In this document: piece after piece, positions 2,049-50,056 of the stretch
Numbering within the stretch: position 1 is the first letter of the stretch
Layout: each line of letters starts with the position of its first letter
Source: Terebella lapidaria
Taxonomy: Eukaryota > Annelida > Polychaeta > Terebellida > Terebellidae
Direction of reading: 5' to 3'
Assembly (NCBI GenBank): GCA_949152475.1
Contig: OX424561.1
Location: 5,456,001 to 5,520,000, forward strand
Length of the DNA stretch: 64,000 bases
Position numbers and translations under genes: made by a program
Notes under the pieces: generated by a model
What the model was told of the DNA's origin: nothing
Database searches by the model: none
What the model saw: the letters and a program-made list of their open reading frames with translations, nothing else

Positions 2049-2335
2049 GCCTTAGTTTATATGCGAGGCCTCGAAGCGAGGTCACGAGGCCACGAAGCGA
2101 GGCCACGAAGCGAGGCCACGAGGCCACGAAGCGAGTCCACGAGGCCACGAAGCGAGGCGACGAGGCCACGAAGCGAGGCAACGAGGCCACGAAGCGAGTG
2201 AAGACACAGACTCGCTTCGTGGCCTCGTGGCCTCGCTTCGTGGCCTCGCATATAAACTAAGGCGAGGCCACGAAGCGAGTCCACAAGGCCACGAAGCGAG
2301 GCCACGAAGCGAGTTCACGAGGCCACGGAGCAAGC
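2049..2335 (+). repeat. 21-bp minisatellite, left foldback arm
   Basis: Tandem units of 21 bp of the type GGCCACGAAGCGAG with CC-to-TC variants. Because 21 is a multiple of three and the unit lacks stops, all frames are open and mimic Arg/Pro/Ser-rich proteins. These are not genes. Part of the array (2212-2262) is flipped. Confidence 0.9.
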
Positions 2336-3265
2336 TCACGCATGAACCCATGAGGAATCATAACGCATTCGCAACAATATTCAGTGATCTTTCTTCATCT
2401 GACAAATGCCGAACGGTACTTATTTATATCAATAATATACTACAAATACAAATATGTATCAAAGACAGCTACCACAAGTACCGACATTTCATATGTGTAT
2501 ATGCAAAGCGTTTGCATATCTGTTATCAAGACGTTTTCGGTACTGGATAAGATCGTAAATATATGTAGACGATCATATTAAATGTACACTTTTCTATGGC
2601 ATCTATGTCTATTTTTTCAGTGTATATATCACTTACATTATACTACATATTGACTATAAGCTAACAAAAAAATGATTTGTGAAATATATAAACCACAACA
2701 ACAACACCCCACGTTCAAACCTATAACTTATCTGTACTCGAAGCCAGGTTCAATGACGCCGACAATGCTCTTTCCAATCGGTGTGACCTATAATCTTCGT
2801 ATCTGATGATGATTTAATGACATATTTGGAAAACTGTGTGAATGTGTGATTCGTAAAGTTTCCAGCAACCAATCAGTTTATTACAATATAATATATGTAA
2901 CCTTTTTTCAGGACTGTAATATTTACACCCTCCAATATAAGTTGTTTTGTTATTCGATCCTCTGAGTGCCAAGAACAAAAAGTGTTAGCTGTGATGAATA
3001 ATAGCAATTAGAAAACTCCTCAAGTTACTGGTCAGCTTTTAAGACGATGCAAACCCCTGCATTTGTATGACCTTAAAAGAAATATTAAGTTTAGTTCAGC
3101 TAATGCTTGATTGACATTAAACGGAATTCCCTAATAATTATTCACACATAAAAAGTAAATTTCTCTATATCCATGTTGAGGGAATGCCACTCACAATTTC
3201 CTGCATGAGTCTGTATGGACAAATGTTTTGTGACAGGGTTTTGGGTTTTGTTTTGTATCATCTTG

Positions 3266-3716
3266 GACTCGCTTGGTGCCCTCGCTTCGTGGCCTCGCTT
3301 CGTGCCCTCGCCTCGTGGCCTCGTAGCCTCGCTTCGTGGCCTCGTGGACTCGCTTCGTGGCCTCGCTTCGTGCCCTCGCTTCGTGCCCTCGCTTCGTGGC
3401 CTCGTGGACTCGCTTCGTGGCCTCGTAGCCTCGCTTCGTGGCCTCGCGGACTCGCTTCGTGGCCTCGTGGACTCGCTTCGTGGCCTCGTTGCCTCGCTTC
3501 GTGGCCTCGTGGCCTCGCTTCGTGGCCTCGTGGCCTCGCTTCGTGGCCTCGTGGACTCGCTTCGTGGCCTCGTGGACTCGCTTCGTGGCCTCGTGGACTC
3601 GCTTCGTGGCCTCGTGGCCTCGCTTCGTGGCCTCGTGGCGCTTCGTGGCCTCGTGGACTCGCTTCGTGGCCTCGTGGCCTCGCTTCGTGGCCTCGTGGCC
3701 TCGCTTCGTGGCCTCG
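3266..3716 (-). repeat. 21-bp minisatellite, right foldback arm
   Basis: About twenty copies of the same 21-bp unit in the orientation opposite to 2049-2335. It generates spurious frames of 96 to 325 codons on both strands. Confidence 0.9.
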
Positions 3717-3778
3717 CATATATACTAAGGCGAGCCCACGAGGCCACGAGGTGGCCGCCATCGTACACCATACAGAGC

Positions 3779-4254
3779 CCATCACCAGAGGTTAGGTTCT
3801 CTGCCATCACACACGGCTGTCACGTCTATCATCTCCCTCCCTCCGATCTTAGATACATGTTGGTGACTGGCGTTGTGTGCGGAATTTGTCCGACTCGACA
3901 ATTAAATTTGCAACTACGTCAACATGGATGCACAAATAAATTCCAAAGTTGGCATATCGATAGAGGGAGCAGAAAGGGCCAGAACGTGCCCCAAATGGAA
4001 AAAAATCCGTTCCCATACAACAAAACGTGCCACGTTTGTGACATACATACATCCAAACATACACACACGGTCGATCCCATATACTCACCTTTGGTGAGTA
4101 AAAAATGTATATCATACCCACAAGCATTTCCATACATCGCAAAAGCCACTAAGTATAGACCGCTACATTGGTTCAAGAAAGTAATGGAATGATAAACTGC
4201 CTTCGAAAATACTGTAATTTTTTTTCAAAATCATATTCTAGTGCAGCATATTTT
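3779..4254. other. Unassigned stretch
   Basis: No repeat or gene recognised. Frames on both strands here are extensions of the satellite frame or short chance frames. Confidence 0.4.
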
Positions 4255-15473: not shown

Positions 15474-16030
15474 CACGTTCGAACGTAGAAAGTTCAAAAG
15501 TACCACGTTCGCATGTGGAAGCATTTAGCGCTCTCACGTTCTCACGTGGTAACATTAAAACTTATCACGTTCGCACGTAGAAAGGTTTTAGGCTTCCACG
15601 TTCACACGTAGAAAGTCCAAAGCTACCACGTCCACACGTGGAAACATTATATGCTTTCACGTTCGCACGTAGAAACTTTGAAACCTTCCACGTTCGAACG
15701 TAGAAAGATGTAGGTTTCCACGTTCACACGTAGAAAGTTTCAAAGCTACCAGGTTCACACGTGGAAACATTTATACCTTTCCACGTTCGCACGTAGAAAG
15801 ATTTAGGTTTCTACGTTCACACGTAGATAGATTCAAAGCTACCACATTCACACGTGAAAGCATTTGATGCTACCACACCCAAATCTTTGCACGTGCAAAT
15901 GTGGTAGCTGTTAAATGCTTCCACGTGTGAACGTGGTAACCTCGAACTTTCCACGTGTGAACGCAGTAGCCTTAACTGTTTCCACGTGTGAACGTGATAG
16001 TGTTAAATGCTTCCACGTTCGAACGTGCTA
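15474..16030. repeat. Foldback array of CACGTTC/GAACGTG palindromic units
   Basis: Thirteen or so units of 30-31 bp beginning CACGTTCGCACGTAGAAAG or CACGTTCACACGTGG run from 15474 to about 15880. The array then reverses orientation and continues as CACGTGTGAACGTGG units to about 16030. The turning point is a perfect 14-bp palindrome, TTTGCACGTGCAAA (15886-15899). Many units contain CACGTG or ACGTTCGAACGT, that is E-box or XRE-like cores. The layout, arrays in opposite orientation around a centre, resembles the satellite arms of the foldback elements at 2016-3772 and 56350-58417, but no TATGG ends or target duplication were found. Confidence 0.75.
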
Positions 16031-16039
16031 GCTTTTTGC

Positions 16040-16860
16040 TGGAAAAGACATAGACAATTTTTACGTGCATGTCACCTCTGGGCTTCCGTAATTAATATAT
16101 TGGACAAGGACAAACAGTTCAATCATTTTTTGTTATATACTTTGTATCACCAAGTACAATACACGATACAATATCACACACCTAGATACATTATTAATAA
16201 AGATAATATTTAATGAATGCCACAAGTCTCTTCAGTTTCAGTCACTGTAGAATTATTCACTCCCGTTCTCCGAGTAGGGTAGTCACTCACACACACTTAG
16301 AAATGCGTGCACAGGAATGGACGAGTGGTTATCTGTAGAGATTGGCGAGAAGTCGCCAACAGATTTCGCCCACATAGCTTTTCTGTGAAAACGGTGCAAC
16401 GAGGGGCGGGTCCTTGCCTGCAGAACTCGCCCATGGACCTCCTATGAGGATTTGGCGAGCTTTCGCTCATGGATTTCTCTTGTACAGTAGCAACCCTGAG
16501 GGTCGCCCTTGGCCAGGGAGAGATGGTGCACGAATTCCAACAAAGCACCAAAACTCAATGTGTTGGTGAGACACCCAGCTTTATCGGCATCTCGCTCATG
16601 GTGGTAAACTCACCCATCAGTAAACACAAGGTCTGAACTCGGTCACCAGTAATGATCGAACAAGCCCATCGATGAGATGGCGAGGTTCCCCCCATCAAAG
16701 ATTTTATATAGAGATCTATAGAAAATCTCTGCCCACATGTATGACGTCACCTTATTACAGTTACCTCATTACAATTATTACGTCACGTGACAATAGCTGA
16801 AATTCCATCGGGGACAAATAGTCTAGGCACGTTTTCTATAAAGGGCCTTAGAAATGACGA
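16040..16860. other. Unassigned stretch with loose GGCGAG/CTCGCC repeats
   Basis: Between 16330 and 16700 the words TTGGCGAG, TTCGCCCA and CTCGCCCATGGA recur at irregular spacing, possibly a decayed minisatellite. No gene recognised. Confidence 0.4.
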
Positions 16861-16862
16861 TA

Positions 16863-17640
16863 GGGGGGATGGAATGTTACTGCCTGTCACCCATGCTGAG
16901 GTCAAAGTAGGGTCCTTACTGGTTAATATTAGCCTGGATGACAATCAAAATTTTAATTTTTTAATAAAATTCTAACAATTTTATATACGGACGAAGCCGC
17001 GGTTATTTTTTTCGTTTTGAAATTCACATAAAAGACTGTTGAATCGTGAATAATGAAGATAGAGTTATCATTTTGGTGTCAAAATGTCTGAAATTACACG
17101 GCTAATCAAGAAAAATACCATCTAGAGCAGTTCATGGTGTAAGTTTTGTATTATAACATGAAAACACATAATAATATGTCCGAAATTACCTTCGATTTCA
17201 CAATCTGAGACCTGCGAAAATGGGTGTTTCAGTTCACAAATCTATTTTATCTTTACGAAAACTTCACTAAAATTACCCCAGATTATATACCATACTGCCA
17301 AAATAAACCATTCAGAGGTCTTAACTAAGTTTACTGCTAGTAATCAAATGAACCTAACAATACCCCCTAGTGAACTCCGTGATCGCATGATATTCTCAAA
17401 TTTGACAAAACTAGTTATACTCTCACATAAAACTCTGCTAGAATAATTATTTTGAAGTCAAATGATACGAATCATCGTTTCAAATATATCATGCAATAAT
17501 CAGGTCGAGATGTAATTTTTTTCCTATCAAAACAAGAAAAAAAATTCCAAAATTGGACCATAATGATTTACTGGTTGTATACGAAATGTAGGCATCTTAG
17601 AAAGTTCACCATTTGTGGTTTATTAAATGTTTATGTGGTT
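16863..17640 (+). repeat. Left terminal inverted repeat of the 4.8-kb transposon
   Basis: Near-identical over most of its length to the reverse complement of about 20780-21700. It includes the words CTGCCTGTCACC, CGGACGAAGCCGCGG and CCCCCTAGTGAAC. It has no open frame. Confidence 0.85.
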
Positions 17641-18359
17641 AAGTGATATACCATTGATACTTTGTAGAATCAGTCACCAAGTGTACCAGCAGTAGTTTGC
17701 CAAAATCACCAGAGTGACCAGTGGTATTCTGTCCGAGTCACACCACAGAGTAACATGCAGACTGCACAAAGGGGGATTCTATGTTCGGCGATGTTAGGAA
17801 ACTGTTTTCACACAAGCAGTTGTTACCAAACCATCGAACATACAATATCCTGGACTCCAATTAATCAGGGCGTATAGTTGGCATCAGTCAACCGTGGTGC
17901 TGCACAACGTTGGATAATCATAACCCATGACAGAACAATGATCCTGCAGATTTGCGAGAAAAATGACAGGCGTTCATATAAGAAATCCACAGAAAGATGT
18001 CAGTTGTACAGTCAATCAGAAGGATGAAGGAGATATACACAAAGTGTTGGGCATCATTGTAGGCTGGGTCTGCCCATTGAGTACTCGGAGATGAACATAA
18101 GACTCTCGTCAACACAGCATCTGGAATCACAGTCAATGACACATATTACATGATCTACCTACTGCAGGAGACAAATGAAGCAGTTTTTTTTACAAACGAA
18201 GCTTCATGGTGAATCTTATTTTGTTGAACAAAGTCAACTTGATTGCCACACTGCCAGAATTATCTTTGAAGACATTCAGCATCATCGTGCAAACAAAGAC
18301 AACAAAGGTGGTTGCAACATATAATTTACAATAGGTTATAAGCTGATCGGAGTCTATTT

Positions 18360-19995
18360 GCAAAATGCTAGTTATTGCTCGGAATTGTCAACTGAACATG
18401 AAAGATGTAGTCCCATTATGGTCACTGCTATGCAGTGTTTGCGAAAAACACCATTTACATCAGACATGTCTGATGTAAATTCCTAATGTCCGATGTTTCG
18501 TGACCAAACAACAGTCAAAATGTCTGATGATTGCTCCAGATGGCATCATTGCATATCGCGGTTAAAAATCGATCAGATTTTTTGTTCCCGTAAATTTTCA
18601 ACTGCCCCATTCATGGTCTGATGTAAAAGGAAAATGTCTGATGTTAGGCAGTTTCACATCAGACATTTTGTCTGATGTGGTTAAATGTTTTTCGCGAACA
18701 CTGCTGCTATGGACATTGGCCAACACAGCTGGAGTTCCTGCTTAAACAACCAAGGTGCCTCTGTTACACATCCTCGAAGACTACCATGAACCAGTTGAAG
18801 ATGTTCCACAATCGGCAGTTCTCACCGATGGTATGGAAGTACTGCACTTTGTCAAGATTGCTCTCAAGACACTTGGAGTTCAGGCTCAGTACATCTTTCA
18901 ACTGGTGCCTACATACCTACATGCTCACTCACAAAAGAGTCAACTATGTCATGGATCCTTAATCCATTGTATACATCAAAAACTCGGAGCATGCAAAGCG
19001 TGCCAAACGGGGAAGCTCTCAAGTCATGATCCAAGGAAAATCAAAATTGTCCAACACGGTCGAAGAAATTTATGTGACGTGAGTAACTAGACAAGTCTGT
19101 CTCAATTCCGCTTTGAATGGCAGCAGACTGAGTATGTAGTCTTGTACACTTGTTGTAATTACTAACACATAGTAAAGAGTACTACGTACAACCTCGTTGT
19201 TGGGCACAGCACCATTCTGACTACTGGTTCGATCAGTTGAGCATCAAACAGGAGGAAGCTGCCAGTCATGCAGCATCAAAAGCAAATAGCTGCTTCATCC
19301 TCAGGTCACCAGCACCTAAGTTGCTGTGTTGGCATGTGCGAGAGTTCTATCCTGCCCTGAAAACAAACAATGTACAAGGTACATGTACATCGACACCACA
19401 GCCATAGGCATCTCACTTGGCATGGTCGTATGCAGTGATTTTGTTGCCAAAGGAAAGACACAGCCATTTCAGTCGACAATGGCTGATCAAAACATGTGTG
19501 ATGTCAGGAAAAAGATTGGTAAATCATTCTCCAACAGAGAAGAACTTCTCGATGGCTCTGAATGTGTTTCATACTTCTCCAAGAAATTTCTCACGAAGAA
19601 TATTTCTAAACAGACATAAATTCTGTCAGGTACAAACCATTCTGCAGCAGGAATGAGCAAACATTTCATCTTGTACCAAAAAAAGGAAGCTCTCAAACAC
19701 CACGTTGCATGAGTCAGTTAGGGTTGCATCTGGAGAACCTCGCTACAGAAGGCTGTCAAAGCTTCAAGCCCAAATGATCATGGCTCGAGTGTGGTTGCTG
19801 AGAGCATCTCGATTCACCATACAGATCAGATGTTAACACCAAAAGCCATGCGATTCAAATGTTAGAAGGACCATTGCACAGGAACATGTTCTCCAAAGAA
19901 TGCAATGTCTTATATTGAAGGTTATGTCTGTACAGACTGATCAAACAATCCCGACTTGAGCAACAATAATACGACCTTGGGCATGAACTACTGTT
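18360..19995 (+). pseudogene. Decayed gene of a large uncharacterised invertebrate protein family (candidate transposase or nuclease)
   Basis: No long frame survives, but blocks in shifting plus-strand frames occur in the order I remember for a widespread invertebrate family. They are KMLVIARNCQLNMKDV (about 18366); KVPLLHILEDY and LTDGMEVLHFVK (about 18753-18860); SIVYIKNSEHAKRAKRGSSQ (about 18962), the family's SIKNAERxxRG motif; QEEA...HAASKA...ILRSPAP (about 19245-19315), the degenerate EEADTR...SPDTDV block; VAVLACARVLSCP, YIDTTAI and DFVAKGKTQPF (about 19325-19470); and FHLVPKKEALKHHV (about 19660). Several frameshifts and stops separate them. The GCD-containing segment expected just before AGKGK is missing, and a 271-bp MITE interrupts the gene. 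The intact family's EEAD...SPDTDV...GCD pattern resembles FEN/XPG-type PIN nucleases; that reading is inference. A host-gene fragment captured by the transposon is the alternative. Confidence 0.55.
18433..18703 (+). mobile_element. hAT-type MITE (271 bp, 8-bp target duplication)
   Basis: Inverted ends CAGTGTTTGCGAAAAACA (18433) and TGTTTTTCGCGAACACTG (to 18703) differ at one base. CTGCTATG is duplicated exactly at 18425-18432 and 18704-18711. An 8-bp duplication and CAG...CTG ends are the hallmarks of hAT elements. Inside, ACATCAGACATGTCTGATGT and further TGTCTGATG copies extend the inverted arms. Without the insertion the host text reads continuously through CTGCTATGGACATTGG, so the MITE landed inside the older transposon's gene. 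Confidence 0.92.
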
Positions 19996-20779
19996 TGACA
20001 GGAAATGAGAATGACATGGAATACATTTCATTGTCAAATTAATCTGTGTTGAGCTTTCCCATGTCTATGTTTATGCTGGCCATACCCCTTGAATATGCAC
20101 ATGTCATGACATGTACAATTAAAGAGGCTGGAAGATAAATATTTTGTTGATCCGAAGCTTAGAAGAACATGTTGCTAATATTATTTGCAGAAGGTAAAAC
20201 ATGGGTTTGTTTATTGTCATAAATTTTAGACTACATACAAGTTCATACATGTATCAATAGTGTTTTGCTCTGAAACAAACTCTTCATTTTAGGCCGTATG
20301 TTTCAATTAGAACGGGTTTTGTATGATCTCATGATCAAGGAGTCAAGAAGGGGAAAAGATCCAACATAGGAAGTAAAACTGAATGTTGCAACATTTTAGT
20401 CAAATGACAAGTGATCTTATGAAGTTATATGAACTCTTATTAGTGGTACGATTTTGGACCACAACTCACATTTTGTGGTGGCATGAATCTCCACCCACAT
20501 GAACCAATTATACAATGTATCCATCGAAATGGTACCGGTAATTAATTATTTCGTTTTGATCGTATATAAAATGTTAAGATTTCTTCGAATACTCGATCAC
20601 AAAACACTATGACATACATATATCCCCTCCTCTCAAAACCCTGTAAAACATTCACAGAGTGAATATTATATTTAGTTGGCGAATATTATGGATTCAAATA
20701 TGTTAAAATTGTGATGAATTAAGCTACTGGTCGCTATGTCGACTAAGTAACACTAGCAGAACACTTGACAACTTTAGCA

Positions 20780-21700
20780 GCGAATAACCACAAACGATCA
20801 ACTTTCTAAGATGCCGACACAGTAAATAAATTATTGTGGTCAAATTTTGGTGTGTTTTTGTAGTTTTCATAAAAAAAAAAACACATCTGGACTTGGAGTT
20901 TATACTTTGGGTTTGAACTAATGATTCCTATCATTTGATATCAAAATAATTTGTCCATCATAGTTATTGGTAAGATTAATCATTAACCAATCAATGGTTA
21001 TGGTCAAATTTTGGTGGATATTTCTTATGTTTTGATGAGAAGAAATTTCACATCTCTAACTGATTACTGTATTGTATGTTTGAAATGATGATTCGTATCA
21101 TTTGACATCAAAATAATCATTCTAGCATAGTAATATGTGAGAGTATAACTAGTTTTGTCAAATTCGAGAATATCATACGATCACGGGGTTCACTAGGGGG
21201 TAGTGTTAGGTTCATTTGATTTCTAGCTGTAAATTTGGTTAAGACCTTGGGATGGTTTATTTTGGCAGTATGGTATATAATCTAGGGTAATTTTAGTGAA
21301 GTTTCCGTAAAGATAAAATAGATTTGTGAGCTGGAACACCCATTTTCGCAGATCTCAGATTGTGAAATCGAAGGCAATTTCGGACTTATTATTATGTGTT
21401 TTCATGTTATAATACAAAACTTACACCATGAACTGCTGTAGATGGTATTTTTCTTGATTTGCCATGTAATTCCAGACATTTTGACACCAAAATGATACCT
21501 CTAGCTTCATTATTCACGATTCAACAGTCTTTTATGTGAATTTCAAAACGAAAAAAATAACCGCGGCTTCGTCCGTATATAAAATTGTTAGAATTTTATG
21601 AAAAAATTAAAATTTTGAATGTCATCCGGGCTAATATTGACCAGTAGGGACCCTACTTTGACCCCAGCATAGGTGACAGGCAGTAACATTCCATCCCCCC
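20780..21700 (-). repeat. Right terminal inverted repeat of the 4.8-kb transposon
   Basis: Reverse complement of the left arm. It contains an internal tandem duplication: the ATTGTGGTCAAATTTTGGTG / GTTATGGTCAAATTTTGGTG phrases about 160 bp apart mark the two units. Confidence 0.85.
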
Positions 21701-21702
21701 TA

Positions 21703-22188
21703 AAGTGTTATTTTGAGATTTTGTACCTAGTCTAAAACCCTGCCAATGTGTGACACTGACGCGCAGGGAGACGCCGAACCCCTGCCCGGCCAGCCTGATG
21801 ATCCCAGGTTTCAGACCAACGACTCCTCACGGCGACTCCTTCGTGCCTGTACGCCTGTACACAATAACCGTGTGAATCCACTGCTTTTCCATTCTCCTGT
21901 CGGTGATATGTCTCCTGGTATGGCGTAACGGAAGCCGTGTTCAAAGTCCCTTTTTGCTTCACAAACCGGCCGCTAAATCAAGGCCGGAAACAGCAGCAGA
22001 CGCTTTTGAGGGGTAACGCTTTACCTGTTTTCTTCTGCTAAAGTTTGGGATTTATCTGCAGTTAATATGTATTTCTGCAAGATTTTGAGATTATAGGTTA
22101 GTCACAATAGGTTGTGAGCTAGGGATATACGTATCAATCTACAAGCTACAGAATAGTAGGAATGGAAAGTGTTAAGAATATGTCCGGA
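21703..22188. other. Unassigned stretch with a GC-rich patch
   Basis: 21740-22000 is clearly GC-richer than its surroundings. Opposing frames of 60 and 76 codons overlap there (21746-21928 plus, 21732-21962 minus) with no recognisable domain. It could be a decayed exon or a repeat fragment. Confidence 0.4.
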
Positions 22189-22541
22189 AGAAATGTTTTG
22201 CTGTTTTTTTTCTATTGATGAATTAAATTAATATCTCGCCTATTATTCCCCAGTGCTCGAGTTTTCACTGCAGGTTTTTCTTATGCGCATATGCCTATTC
22301 TAATATGATTCTATTACATCAGCGTTATATCAGCGCGTGCAAAAAATCACTGCCTGGGCGAACAGGGTATATGCATATGGCATTGTTTCGAGTGCTAGAT
22401 CGGTTTATCTAGCACTCTGTCACCGAATCTAGGCCGAGCCTTTAGGCTAAAAAAAACCTGGAGTGAAGACTCGAGCACTGGGGAATAATAGGCGAGATAT
22501 TAATTTAATTCATCAATAAAAAAAAACAGCAAAACATTTCT
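22189..22541. mobile_element. MITE with near-perfect 90-bp inverted ends
   Basis: AGAAATGTTTTGCTG (22189) through about 22280 matches the reverse complement of about 22453-22541 with very few mismatches, including the TTAATATCTCGCCTATTATT and CCCCAGTGCTCGAGT stretches. The centre has a second stem-loop, GTGCTAGAT...TATCTAGCAC (about 22391-22414). No unambiguous target duplication. High arm identity suggests it is young, or conserved by pairing. Confidence 0.85.
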
Positions 22542-43379: not shown

Positions 43380-44520
43380 CATGTCGCTTTTGTCATGGTT
43401 GGTGCTTCCAGTATGAAAGAAAGTGACATGCCCGGGAAATACCTGACATCAAATGCAGGGCCATTGAAATAGCTTTTGTTCTAAAAATTCACGCCATGTA
43501 TCACCCTATTATCAAGAAGTGATTAAGCGCTACGGCCTCATGCAATATTGAATCAGCGCCTAGCGCTGGAATAGAGTGGGATCAGATAATCTGGCACAAC
43601 AGGGAGTTTTATGGTGTAATATTTTACCAATACATCGTAACGATGTTTTGAGGGCGTTATGATCTACAGATGTCCATCCTTTTTGAAAATCACAATCTTA
43701 CAACTAGCCAGCAAAACCAGATGCGTCTTTATGTTTACATTCCCTGATGCAATAAAGTTGCTAAGTTAAGAAGCACAGTCGAATAATCTATGATGTGGAT
43801 ATTGCAAGCAGACTGGAATAAAATATTCCACCATTCACATCAGCCGTGGAAAAGGCGACATGGGCGATAATGAGCATTTGGTTGTGAAAAACAAGACATG
43901 GACGATGGTGTTCGGTTCTCTCACATGTCGCGTTTGTCATGCTACATGAACACCAAAGGAGAGTTCGTGCAGGGTGCCTCCTATATTCGGGTATTGAGTT
44001 TCACTAATTCCTAGTAGACTGTAAAGGCAACAATAAGTACCCAGGAATCATACATTTCGAAGCAATCGGTCGTTTCAGAGGGATTTTCGATGAACAAGCA
44101 TCACTTCCTTTGGTGATGATGTAATGGCTAGAAAACACTCATATCGTGTTTCTTCCAATACCTCTCTATTCCTGGAATGTAACTGATCGTGTGGGCAGAG
44201 GGATAATGTGACAATAACATCAGTTACATTAGCCAGAGCTGTTTGACTTCCTGTCTTTTATATTAATATCACAATGTCTCGGGGATCAACGAGCTCGCCC
44301 ACCTGTGTAGATGACCTTGTACAAAATAACTGGAAACGAGATTAAAATCAGAAGAATGGAACTTGCTGGTGGTCCACCATTTTCTTTCGTAAAGATTATG
44401 CTTGTAAAATGATACTTATTTGTGAGTGGTATGGCTCAGCATACTTTTAACCATGAAACACAAAGACACACCTAACCTTCATTTGAGAACAAAAAAACAG
44501 AACTCTTACAAACGTTAAAC
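43380..44520. other. Mostly unassigned stretch
   Basis: Contains a reversed copy of the GGGCAGAGGGATAATGTG motif (about 44193) of the 9590 repeat family. No gene recognised. Confidence 0.4.
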
Positions 44521-44559
44521 GTGGATATATCCGATATATTGGGTATTGCCAACTGGGTA

Positions 44560-45179
44560 TTGCCAACGATACTAATTCCAATAGTACATACCAAGCCATC
44601 ACCTTGCCCAAACAGGATATCTTATCAAATCATTTGTCTGTATTGCATTCGTTTGGTATTACTACCTCATGTAAAGATTCTAATCTACCGAACTTATATT
44701 GGATCCCAAAGTTGCACAAAAATCCACACAAACAAAGATATATTTCAGGTTCAGCATCATGTTCTACCAAAGCCCTTTTTAAAATACTAACTATTATATT
44801 GTCTAAAATTAAACAGGGTCTCCAAAAGTACTCTGAAACCATCTATTCTAGAAGTGGTATAAACCAAATGTGGATATTAAAAAATTCCAAATCTTTATTG
44901 GAATATCTACATGCTCACACACTTTCAAAAGTAACGTCTATCAAAACATTTGATTTCTCCACTTTGTACACAACTATACCTCATTCTGAACTGAAAACTC
45001 AGCTTAAAAAACTAATCAATAAATCATTTTTCTCTAAAAAGGGACAACGTCGGTACCACTATATTGTAGTTAAATATAATACCGTTTATTTTGTTAAAGG
45101 CGACTCTGATGCCCCATACAAATATACTGAAATAGATGTGGTAAATATGGTTAATTTTCTGATTGATAATATTTTTTAA
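44560..45179 (+). mobile_element. Penelope-like reverse transcriptase, N-terminal half (broken)
   Basis: A 191-codon frame (44604-45179) reads KQDILSNHLSVLHSFGITT, LYWIPKLHKNPHKQRYISGS, YSRSGINQMWILKNSK, FDFSTLYTTIPHSELK and DVVNMVNFLIDNIF. LYWIPKLHK corresponds to the template-grip motif and FDFSTLYTTIP to RT motif A with its catalytic Asp. From memory these match invertebrate Penelope-like RTs. Codons upstream of the first Met are similar too, so the element extends left to about 44560. The downstream palm motifs are not on this strand; they lie on the minus strand immediately next door. A fossil, not a working gene. Confidence 0.75.
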
Positions 45180-45505: not shown

Positions 45506-46645
45506 TAAAATCTCACTGTATTGGTGGTAATAGATCGATACTTACATTCAAGGTCATCAGAATATTCAGCATATATCATTTCCTATATGTCCACAATTGA
45601 TTCCTAAGTTGTAAAGTCAATAATAAGCGAGATATTAGCCATTTTGTGCTCTGACCTTGAAACTGAGGTCAGAAGTCAAATTCACGGTCACGAGAATATT
45701 CAGCATATATCATTTCCTATATGTCCACAATTGATCCCTAAGCTGTAAAATTGATAATAAGTGAGATATTAGCCATTTTGTCCTGTGACCTTGAAAATGA
45801 GGTCAAAGTTCAAATTCAAGGCCATCAAAATATTCGGCGTATATCATTTCCTATATGTCCACAATTGATTCCTAAGCTGTAAAGTCGATAATAAGCAAGA
45901 TATTAGACATTTTGTGCTCTGACCTTGAAACCGAGGTCAAAGGTCAAATTCAAGGTCCTGAGAATATTAAGCATATATCATTTCCTATATGTCCACAATT
46001 GATTCCTAGTCTCTAATCTCAATATTAAGTGAGATATTAGGCTTAATGTGTCCCATCATAAAGCATAGGATAATTTAACATGGGAAAGTCCCATAGTCTG
46101 TGGGCCATTCGAGAAAAAAATATTTCCGTCGCCAAATCAGGCATATTAGGTTTCTTGGTGTCATTCTGTAAGTTTTTATATCAGGAAAAATATTAGACCG
46201 GGTAATCTTCTCCAACAGTGTCCAAACAATGGAAAAAATGACTTTTTTCAAGATGGCCGCCGAGTCCGATCAAAAAGTTTGTTTTTGTTTTTTCTCTGCT
46301 TCTTGACGTGCTAGAAGTGTAATCTTAGTGTCCTTTCTTAGGTTTTGAGGGTTGAGGAATCCAATCAAACACATTCCAATAACAATTATGCATTATTTCA
46401 ATTGCAAAAATGCACTTCGCCTGGTATTTGAACGTCAGAAATAGCTACGTATTACCATTTTGGACAAAACAATCCCATGAATACAACATTAAGAGTTTAT
46501 TGTATCCCCTGAACAAAGTCAAGCAGATACTATGGATTTGCAATCATCGCACCCCTACAAGTGCCGTACAGACTTCCTTGTGAACGCTCCACAAGGTGCA
46601 AATCTGAACTGTTTCTGACAATATTCCATATGTATATGCCTTATA

Positions 46646-48265: not shown

Positions 48266-50056
48266 GTCCGGCTGCAGTTTGTCTCGAATGACTTCGGCAC
48301 TCTGGCTTTGGGTTGTTTCGGGTGACGTCGGTTCCCTGGCTGCACGCCGTCTCGGGTGGTAGCGGGTTTGGTCTGCAGTCACTCCTCGCCTGCGCCAAGT
48401 AAGTAAGGATCGTCAATCATTCGGGTTTTAGTTTGCTTTCCTCATCGACCTCTTCCTTTTTGTCTGGTTGTTCAGTTGATAGCTTGGGTTCTGAGCTATC
48501 TCTGTCTTTATTAGCTTTATTTTACTCAACTGGTCTTCCCATCAATTCTACGTTCAACTTTGGTTGACTTTACTTCTTGAAATTCTCTTAAGTTCGGTTT
48601 CATTCCATCTGTTTACCCGAACACGGAGTCGGCTGGGCCGACTCAAAGATCAACTCTCGGCTTGATTTCAAGGTTTCGTGACGAATCACACATTCGGATG
48701 AAATTGTTGCAGATACATCTAGAGAGGAAGTTGACTATGATTGAACTCAACCACATGTGTTATGTATGTTGTACAACAATTGCCAAACTTATTTGTTTCA
48801 CATATACAGTATTAAATATGAAGTAGAAAAAAACAAGACAACCTTAGAAAGGAACGTTCAGCAAGTAGATAGCATATAATCTATTTGGCCATTGTTCCAC
48901 TTTTCTTTATATAATTGGATGTGCATAAATTGATATGTTGATGAGTTATTCATGGAATTGTTTTGTTCAAAATGGTAATACCTGGTAATGAATAACGCAA
49001 TTACATTTAAAACAGTCTTCCTCCACAAATCGCTATTTCTGACGTTCAAATACCAGTCAAAGTGTAGTTTTTCAATTGAAATAATGCATAAATGTTCTTG
49101 AAATGTATTTCATTGGATTCCTCAACCTTCAAAACCCAAGAAAGGACACCAAGATTACACCTCTAGCTTGTCTAGAAGCAGAGAAAAAACAAAAAAAGGT
49201 CATTTTTTCCATTGTTTGGACACTTTTTGAGAAGGTTACCCGGTCTAATATTTTTCCTGACATGAAAACCTACAGAATGATACCAAGAAACCTAATATGC
49301 CCGATTTGGCGACGAAAACCCATTTTAGAGGTCTCCTGAAAAATGGCCTAAGGACTATTTGGGCCGAGTTTGGGCCCAAAATGGCCCACTTCGAGCGATT
49401 CAAGGGCAACGAAATTTATACATGTCACAGGGGTACATATGAGGAGTGTTATGCCTTTTTTATATGGAAAAAAGTTATTGAACAGATTTTGAGAAAACGA
49501 CCGTCAAAGTCCAAAATTGGTCATTTTTCGACGAAAACGGCCGCTCTGACCTAGGTCAGAGGTCAAATTCAAGGTCACGAGAATATTCAGCATATATCAT
49601 TTCCTATATGTCCACAATTGATTCCTAATCTCTAATCTCAATATGAAGTGAGATAATAGGCTCAATGTGTCCCTTTATAAAGCATAGGAGAATTTAACAT
49701 GGAAAAGTCCCATTCGGGCTGAGTTTGGGCCCAAAATGGCCCATTTCGAGCGATTCAAGGGCGACGAAATTTATACATGTCACAGGGGTACATATGAAGA
49801 GTGTTATGCATCAATAAGAAAAAAAGTTACTGAACAGATTTTGAGAAAACGACTGTCAAATTCCAAAATTGGCCATTTTTTTTTACGAAAATGGCCGCCA
49901 TTTTGAAAAAAAATCGAAAATCAGAAAACTAAAAAAAAAACTTTCCTAGAAATATTTTTAGGTATTTTTGTGCAAAATTTAAGAAATATTCCATCGTAAA
50001 CTTTAAAGATGAAAATGTGAACGGACGGACGGACGACGGACGCAACTCCATGCCAA

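What the first reader, a model, noticed from the sequence alone, without database searches (positions are those of the whole stretch)
16863..21700. TIR transposon carrying remains of a large, uncharacterised invertebrate protein family
The 4.8-kb element has exact ends, TA flanks and 0.8-kb inverted arms. Its interior keeps, in order, at least six blocks that I recall from a widespread uncharacterised invertebrate family (SIKNxERxxRG, EEADTR...SPDTDV, AGKGK, LPPT-type C-terminal block). If the link holds, that family is the enzyme of a DNA transposon group. The EEAD...SPDTD...GCD pattern of the intact family looks like a FEN/XPG-type PIN nuclease rather than a DDE transposase, which would be an unusual way to move DNA. 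Seen: ends, arms and peptides. Recalled: family match. Inferred: nuclease fold and role.
Basis: partly seen in the sequence, partly recalled or inferred. Interest (0 to 1): 0.8.

Follow-up and report, generated by a model that had tools for sequence, protein, structure and literature searches.

The report
Dead transposon with two-enzyme gene remnant
This stretch is a broken invertebrate jumping gene that still carries the tail half of a large, little-studied protein, and the intact protein looks like a possible DNA-moving enzyme joined to a possible DNA-trimming enzyme.

Summary
The element is real: 16863-21700 (4,838 bp), exact ends, TA on both sides, 714-bp arms 91.5% alike. It carries a decayed fragment of a real protein family. 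One scan found an intact relative, L001: an open frame of at least 1,466 codons on a probably eukaryotic contig binned as a planctomycete. Allowing frameshifts, two window pieces (about 17730-18424 and 18710-19940) align collinearly with its residues of about 763-985 and 993-1440; 0 of 134 and 0 of 86 other window pieces score as high. Its first ~760 residues were not detected here, a 271-bp MITE interrupts the gene, and three of five nuclease-like motifs are decayed or gone: a dead, internally deleted copy. The nuclease idea fits by motif order, but its statistics are weak and mixed. 'Rather than DDE' is not supported: about 1,030 residues precede the first nuclease-like motif, with weak DUF6589 similarity and D, D, E kept in the one recalled member compared. 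No intact gene between inverted repeats could be shown. From recall, the Academ superfamily is the likeliest home, but its recalled 3-4-bp duplication does not match TA.

The parts
16863..17576 (+). Left terminal inverted repeat, starts GGGGGGATGG, TA at 16861-16862
20985..21700 (-). Right terminal inverted repeat, TA at 21701-21702
17418..17668 (+). Inner diverged extension of the inverted repeat (69% to 20739-20978)
17729..18424 (+). Gene remnant, first piece: matches L001 protein residues of about 763-985 with frameshifts and stops. The formal alignment begins wherever the searched piece begins (17581); the score rises steeply only from about 17730
   Evidence: piece 17579-18432: score 247; 40 shuffled proteins max 190; 134 other window pieces max 180
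18433..18703 (.). Nested 271-bp MITE with CAGTG...CACTG ends inside the gene remnant; 8-bp duplication CTGCTATG at 18425-18432 and 18704-18711
18710..19937 (+). Gene remnant, second piece: matches L001 protein residues 993 to about 1432-1440 (formal alignment runs on weakly to 20033/1465)
   Evidence: piece 18704-20060: score 359; 40 shuffled proteins max 304; 86 other window pieces max 268
18827..18829 (+). Equivalent of first FEN/XPG-like Asp (AVLTDGMEVL), kept
   Evidence: frame translation, alignment; role inferred
18954..19013 (+).
   Evidence: role inferred
19252..19323 (+). Decayed EEADTR...SPDTDV block (EEAAS...SPAPKL): the two Glu kept, the other candidate acidic residues lost
19434..19457 (+). 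SDFVAKGK: remains of the GCDxxSxFxGKGK block; the GCD part is missing

Best explanation
The locus is a dead, internally deleted copy of an animal TIR DNA transposon. An intact relative of its gene encodes one long protein: an N-terminal half that probably recognises and cuts the ends with an RNase-H-type (DDE) core, a C-terminal half that probably is a FEN/XPG-like nuclease, and an eight-cysteine tail that probably binds metal or DNA. I think it moved by cut-and-paste into TA sites, with the N-terminal half doing cutting and joining and the nuclease trimming branched or flap ends left by cutting, joining or copying of the long arms. Shown: element, arms, TA flanks, gene remnant, its relation to an intact frame of at least 1,466 codons, absence of most of the N-terminal half here. 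Inferred: both enzyme assignments, the division of labour, and that this protein family moved the element.
For: Arms and TA flanks. The gene remnant lies wholly between the arms, is collinear with L001 and far above two controls. L001 is one open frame of at least 1,466 codons. Nuclease half: D, D, ExD, DxD and GCDxxSxFxGxGK occur in FEN order with similar spacing; a pattern written from FEN/Exo1 and then relaxed passes in L001, 2 of 3 recalled relatives and 3 of 3 FENs, 0 of 1,021,040 shuffles and 0 of 43 background frames (post hoc); Exo1 is 4 of 4 PDB hits up to E 10 for one profile and 4 of 8 for another, in the expected register; hhalign picks the same GxD stretch, not significantly. N-terminal half: DUF6589 at E 0.0005-0.003, below its cut-off; D341 (FDNID), D552 (VVLDEAIY) and E799 (MAIEQ) are kept in a recalled relative 30% identical, E 7e-72. 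Eight invariant C-terminal cysteines besides the GCD cysteine.
Against: No XPG model of Pfam appeared for L001 or the recalled relatives at a limit of E 10 (HMMER's filters drop most matches above 0.1). An HMM of three archaeal FENs ranks the L001 C-terminus 351st of 852 reported among its own 2,000 shuffles. Profile A4 finds no PDB hit, L001 alone 3 hits, none FEN, and TDP2 ranks above Exo1. Both structure predictions were unusable (pLDDT 37 and 36). No PDB match for the N-terminal half; the recalled N-terminal relative does not hit DUF6589; the DUF6589 model also rang below cut-off in 1 of 14 control genomes at E up to 1. Only one element ties the family to inverted repeats; L001 shows no long inverted arms, but its contig begins inside the gene.
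Confidence: 0.5

Rival explanations
1. A non-autonomous element moved by an unrelated TA-specific transposase (Tc1/mariner type) that picked up a piece of this gene by chance.
For: TA duplication is the general habit of the IS630-Tc1-mariner group (PMC10045372, passages). No transposase other than the remnant was recognised. The first ~760 residues were not detected in this copy.
Against: The remnant spans about 670 codons of the protein and reaches its cysteine-rich end, entirely between the arms, as expected of an element's own internally deleted gene. GGGGGG ends are not those I recall for mariner elements (recall only).
Confidence: 0.2
2. The FEN/XPG-like part itself is the enzyme that cuts the element out and in, and the N-terminal half only binds DNA.
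For: Motif order and spacing of a metal-dependent nuclease.
Against: FEN/XPG enzymes as known cut branched DNA and do not join strands (established knowledge). The N-terminal half has its own D, D, E candidates, conserved in one recalled relative. TA duplications fit a paired strand-transfer enzyme (established knowledge).
Confidence: 0.1
3. The gene family is a host gene family that duplicates by other means, and the arms around this copy are unrelated.
For: L001 shows no long inverted arms, with 2.1 kb of sequence downstream and none upstream of the frame. No second family copy with arms was available.
Against: The remnant begins about 60 bp past the inner end of the diverged left repeat and fills much of the interior. 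The L001 frame is uninterrupted for 1,466 codons, unusual for an animal host gene of this size (general knowledge).
Confidence: 0.12
4. The match of window peptides to the family is chance or wishful recall.
For: My three recalled C-terminal relatives were typed after reading the window; one block of recB may have been coloured by it. In one search their best matches were E 3e-6 to 6e-4, with the best of 50 shuffled queries at 0.014.
Against: L001 comes from a database scan, not from memory, and alone gives 247 and 359 against maxima of 180 and 268 in other window pieces. Ordinary tblastn with L001 is weak (E 0.078; 7e-4 with relaxed settings), as expected of a gene this decayed.
Confidence: 0.02

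Closest known systems
Academ superfamily of DNA transposons (Kapitonov and Jurka 2010, Repbase Reports; cited in PMC4455052, passages)
   Same: From recall, Academ proteins carry an XPG-type nuclease and an eight-cysteine domain; this family has FEN/XPG-like motifs followed by eight invariant cysteines. Listed as encoding a DDD/E transposase (PMC9587614, passage).
   Different: From recall Academ makes 3-4-bp duplications; here only TA is duplicated. No Academ sequence was available to compare, and the papers that describe it which I tried are not held.
ISL2EU (PHIS superfamily)
   Same: Animal transposons with a DDE transposase plus an accessory nuclease (YqaJ), 2-bp duplication, ends usually beginning GG, autonomous consensus about 4,840 bp on average (PMC4482050, passages).
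   Different: Duplication is AT within A|AT|T, the nuclease is YqaJ in a separate frame, and arms are 6-259 bp; here TA, FEN/XPG-like motifs in one frame, 714-bp arms.
KolobokP
   Same: Animal DNA transposon pairing a DDD/E transposase with a nuclease (PMC9587614, title, abstract start and passages).
   Different: His-Me finger nuclease, LTR-like terminal repeats (LTDRs) rather than long inverted arms, and duplications of mainly 3-4 or 4-5 bp.
FEN-1 / Exo1 / XPG nucleases
   Same: Order and spacing of acidic motifs, S-x-K-x-x-E-R-S-x-R-like helix after the second Asp, GCDxxSxxxGxG stretch.
   Different: No significant profile score.

Membership tests
TIR DNA transposon (cut-and-paste, class II) | Terminal inverted repeats with short target-site duplication | tested here: met
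Academ | XPG-type nuclease domain (feature recalled) | tested here: inconclusive
   motif order met; Pfam and FEN HMM not met; weak Exo1 hits
Academ | Eight-cysteine domain after the nuclease (feature recalled) | tested here: met
   8 invariant C-terminal cysteines over 3 sequences, 2 of them recalled
Academ | 3-4-bp target-site duplication (feature recalled) | tested here: not met
   only TA matches at the single site seen: GATA / TAAA
Academ | Sequence similarity to a named Academ transposase | not testable with these tools
   no Repbase or named Academ sequence at hand
ISL2EU | AT duplication within AATT | tested here: not met
   TA, flanks GA|TA and TA|AA
ISL2EU | YqaJ exonuclease frame | tested here: not met
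   no Pfam YqaJ match in 10 window pieces or in L001; the window copy is degraded
Tc1/mariner (IS630) | TA duplication | tested here: met
   definition from PMC10045372 (passages)
Tc1/mariner (IS630) | IS630-type DDE/D transposase | tested here: not met
   no Pfam transposase in 10 window pieces or L001; window copy is degraded
FEN/XPG nucleases | Significant profile match to XPG models | tested here: not met
FEN/XPG nucleases | Ordered acidic motifs and GxD...GxG stretch | tested here: met
   (L001, recA, recB pass; recC fails on GxG; post hoc pattern)
FEN/XPG nucleases | PIN-like fold | tested here: inconclusive
   two single-sequence predictions were unusable
DUF6589 (PF20231) | Score above Pfam cut-off 27 bits | tested here: not met
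   16.8-19.5 bits, E 0.0005-0.003

The most novel reading that the evidence does not exclude
A widespread, unnamed animal protein family is the enzyme of a TA-inserting DNA transposon group in which one polypeptide joins a DDE-type core of a new lineage (DUF6589-like) to a flap-type nuclease that is needed for movement, for example to resolve hairpins or flaps of the very long arms.
Probability: 0.25. Interest if true: 0.72.

Novelty: new variant of a known kind. Interest (0 to 1): 0.42.

Why it matters
If the link holds, a large set of unnamed invertebrate (and, from recall, fish) gene models would be re-annotated as transposon proteins, and a testable question opens: why a DNA transposon would carry a flap-type nuclease fused to its transposase. 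If the family is Academ, this is mainly a new dead member, useful for showing that DUF6589-like sequence and the nuclease-like part belong to one protein and that a TA-flanked version may exist.

Tried and rejected
Direct family searches of window pieces: nothing useful in Pfam (10 pieces; one FAM76 match at 0.043 taken as chance) or NCBIfam (5 pieces; two matches at 0.089 and 0.19 taken as chance).

Relatives in viruses, phages and plasmids: viral contigs gave no match, 0 of 63 and 0 of 64 candidates confirmed, and 5 pattern matches that are unrelated. Phages none; plasmids 4 Sinorhizobium records at E 0.09-0.2, not followed.

Bacterial origin of L001: thought unlikely. It is a 6.5-kb contig of GC 0.38; in a sample of 392 genomes of the phylum (G001 itself included) 390 of the 391 others have no match, and the remaining match, G023 at E 7e-4, lies on a frame that I identified by eye as RdgB/HAM1-like and take as chance.

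Structure: two single-sequence predictions too poor to use (pLDDT 37, 36), so no fold search was made. An alignment with window fragments was misaligned and not used.

PHROGs on L001: one chance-level match at 0.025-0.081. Sub-threshold Pfam matches TcA_TcB_BD (0.014-0.079), DUF6657 (0.11-0.15), RbcX (0.083) and, for recD, DASH_Ask1 (0.18) were taken as chance. Rfam: nothing at gathering score in 16500-22000.

N-terminal 720 residues elsewhere in the element: not detected; best of 9 pieces 170 against a window maximum of 176 over 144 pieces.

First-draft claim withdrawn: that the remnant starts 5 bp inside the left arm. One search shows that the alignment start follows the start of the piece searched, because gap and frameshift costs are lenient; the steep rise begins near 17730. 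The equal-length comparisons are not affected.

Literature: 10 searches, of which I saw listings, and passages of a few papers. The listings showed no paper that links an XPG/FEN nuclease with a DNA transposon, and no paper naming DUF6589. This speaks only for the held open-licence library.
Full report
OBSERVATION. The element runs from 16863 to 21700. Its two 22-bp ends are identical and inverted, and no other place in the window matches them within 3 mismatches. TA lies outside each end, and no longer duplication is visible. The arms align with 658 identities, 57 mismatches and 4 gap columns; Kimura distance between arms is 0.085 over 713 columns. A further diverged block extends the repeat to about 0.8 kb. 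It is the longest inverted repeat in the window.

GENE REMNANT. Window translations alone match nothing useful in Pfam or NCBIfam. Recalled relatives, used as a lead, matched the window best inside this element (E 3e-6 to 6e-4; best of 50 shuffled queries 0.014). A scan of genome contigs with their alignment found 47 pattern matches, 1 of 47 confirmed: L001, contig JAJRVU010000273.1, 39% identical in its best segment to recA with residues 1-497 covered, E 5e-105. The other two recalled sequences match it at 33% and 35%. L001 is deposited in a planctomycete bin, but 390 of 391 other sampled genomes of that phylum have no match and the last looks like chance, GC is 0.38, and the relatives I recall are animal; I read it as contaminating eukaryote DNA (inference). 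L001 holds one open frame of 1,466 codons, open at the 5' contig end.

A frameshift-tolerant alignment of L001 with the window gives two collinear pieces. Piece 17579-18432 scores 247 (40 shuffled proteins 170.6 +/- 8.8, max 190), ending at residue 985; piece 18704-20060 scores 359 (264.0 +/- 10.2, max 304), residues 993-1465. In 134 and 86 other window pieces of the same lengths, both strands, the maxima are 180 and 268; the same pieces reversed give 143 and 224. The costs are lenient, so alignment edges drift: the score climbs steeply only from about 17730 (residue about 763) and flattens after about 19940 (residue about 1440), in keeping with tblastn matches at 17722-17961 and up to 19937. 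Between the pieces sits a 271-bp MITE with an exact 8-bp duplication. Residues 1-720 were not detected in the element. The alignment needs 19 frameshifts and 14 stops in all, weak edges included, so this copy is dead.

NUCLEASE HALF. In L001 the order is IFDAM (1034), VPDRYFPLSIKTAERENR (1078), EEADTR (1182), SPDTDV (1206), GCDSVSSFYGKGK (1264). This parallels FEN/Exo1: ID, VFDGxxxxSKKEVERSRR, ExE, DxD, GCDYLSSLRGIG. A pattern written from FEN/Exo1 and relaxed passes in L001, recA, recB and 3 of 3 FENs, fails in recC, and passes in 0 of 1,021,040 shuffles and 0 of 43 background frames; it was made after seeing the family. Profile A2 against PDB: 4 hits up to E 10, all Exo1, E 0.63-0.69. Profile A5: 8 hits, 4 TDP2 (best 0.33) and 4 Exo1 (0.63-0.94). 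Profile A4: none. L001 alone: 3, none FEN. hhalign to FENs: P 0.079, 0.61, 0.13. No Pfam XPG model appeared, PF00867 did not match G001 while it rang in 4 of 14 control genomes, and an HMM of three archaeal FENs ranked the L001 C-terminus 351st of 852 reported among its own 2,000 shuffles. So the fold is an inference from motifs. In the window copy the first two Asp equivalents survive; ExD and DxD are decayed and GCD is missing.

N-TERMINAL HALF. Residues 559-760 of L001 match DUF6589 weakly: 16.8-19.5 bits against a cut-off of 27, E 0.0005-0.003; the same model rang below cut-off in 1 of 14 control genomes at E up to 1. A recalled relative matches residues 273-828 at 30%, E 7e-72, keeping DNID, the D of LDEAIY/MDQQLY, and DMxxE; that relative itself does not hit DUF6589. 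I propose D341, D552 and E799 as a DDE triad; nothing in PDB by sequence supports or denies it. In the window copy only the E region (QTIEHT) falls within the part that is left. Hence 'nuclease rather than DDE' is not supported.

TAIL. Eight cysteines after the nuclease part are invariant over L001, recA and recB, with sub-threshold TCR/CXC similarity, E 0.34-1.1.

WHAT IT IS. Most likely a dead, internally deleted copy of a TIR transposon whose full protein combines a candidate DDE core, a candidate flap-type nuclease and a cysteine-rich tail. From recall, Academ is described with XPG nuclease and an eight-cysteine domain; a paper lists Academ among DDD/E superfamilies (PMC9587614, passage). 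The papers on it that I tried are not held. The recalled 3-4-bp duplication is not met here, so I do not file it as Academ, though I think that home likelier than not.

LIMITS. One element, one database relative, recalled helpers.

Noticed in passing
18433-18703: Nested 271-bp MITE with CAGTG...CACTG ends and exact 8-bp duplication CTGCTATG, hAT-like by its features; no second copy in the window.
   Followed up: partly
46123-46445 and 49032-49318: A second long inverted-repeat pair, about 80% alike over 323 columns, with about 2.6 kb between the arms; interior not studied.
   Followed up: no
44487-45179: A 230-residue open frame that by eye resembles a Penelope-like reverse transcriptase piece; no Pfam match up to E 1.
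   Followed up: no
15501-16036: Tandem array of about 31-bp units (93-bp higher order) built on CACGT palindromes.
   Followed up: no
2056-3795: Minisatellite with copies about 21 bp apart, open in several frames, in both orientations.
   Followed up: no
22205-22283 and 22448-22526: 79-nt inverted pair, 95% complementary, 164 nt apart, close to the right end of the element.
   Followed up: no
L001 1-6512: A contig deposited as a planctomycete MAG carries an animal-type transposon-like gene of at least 1,466 codons: probable eukaryote contamination of the bin.
   Followed up: partly
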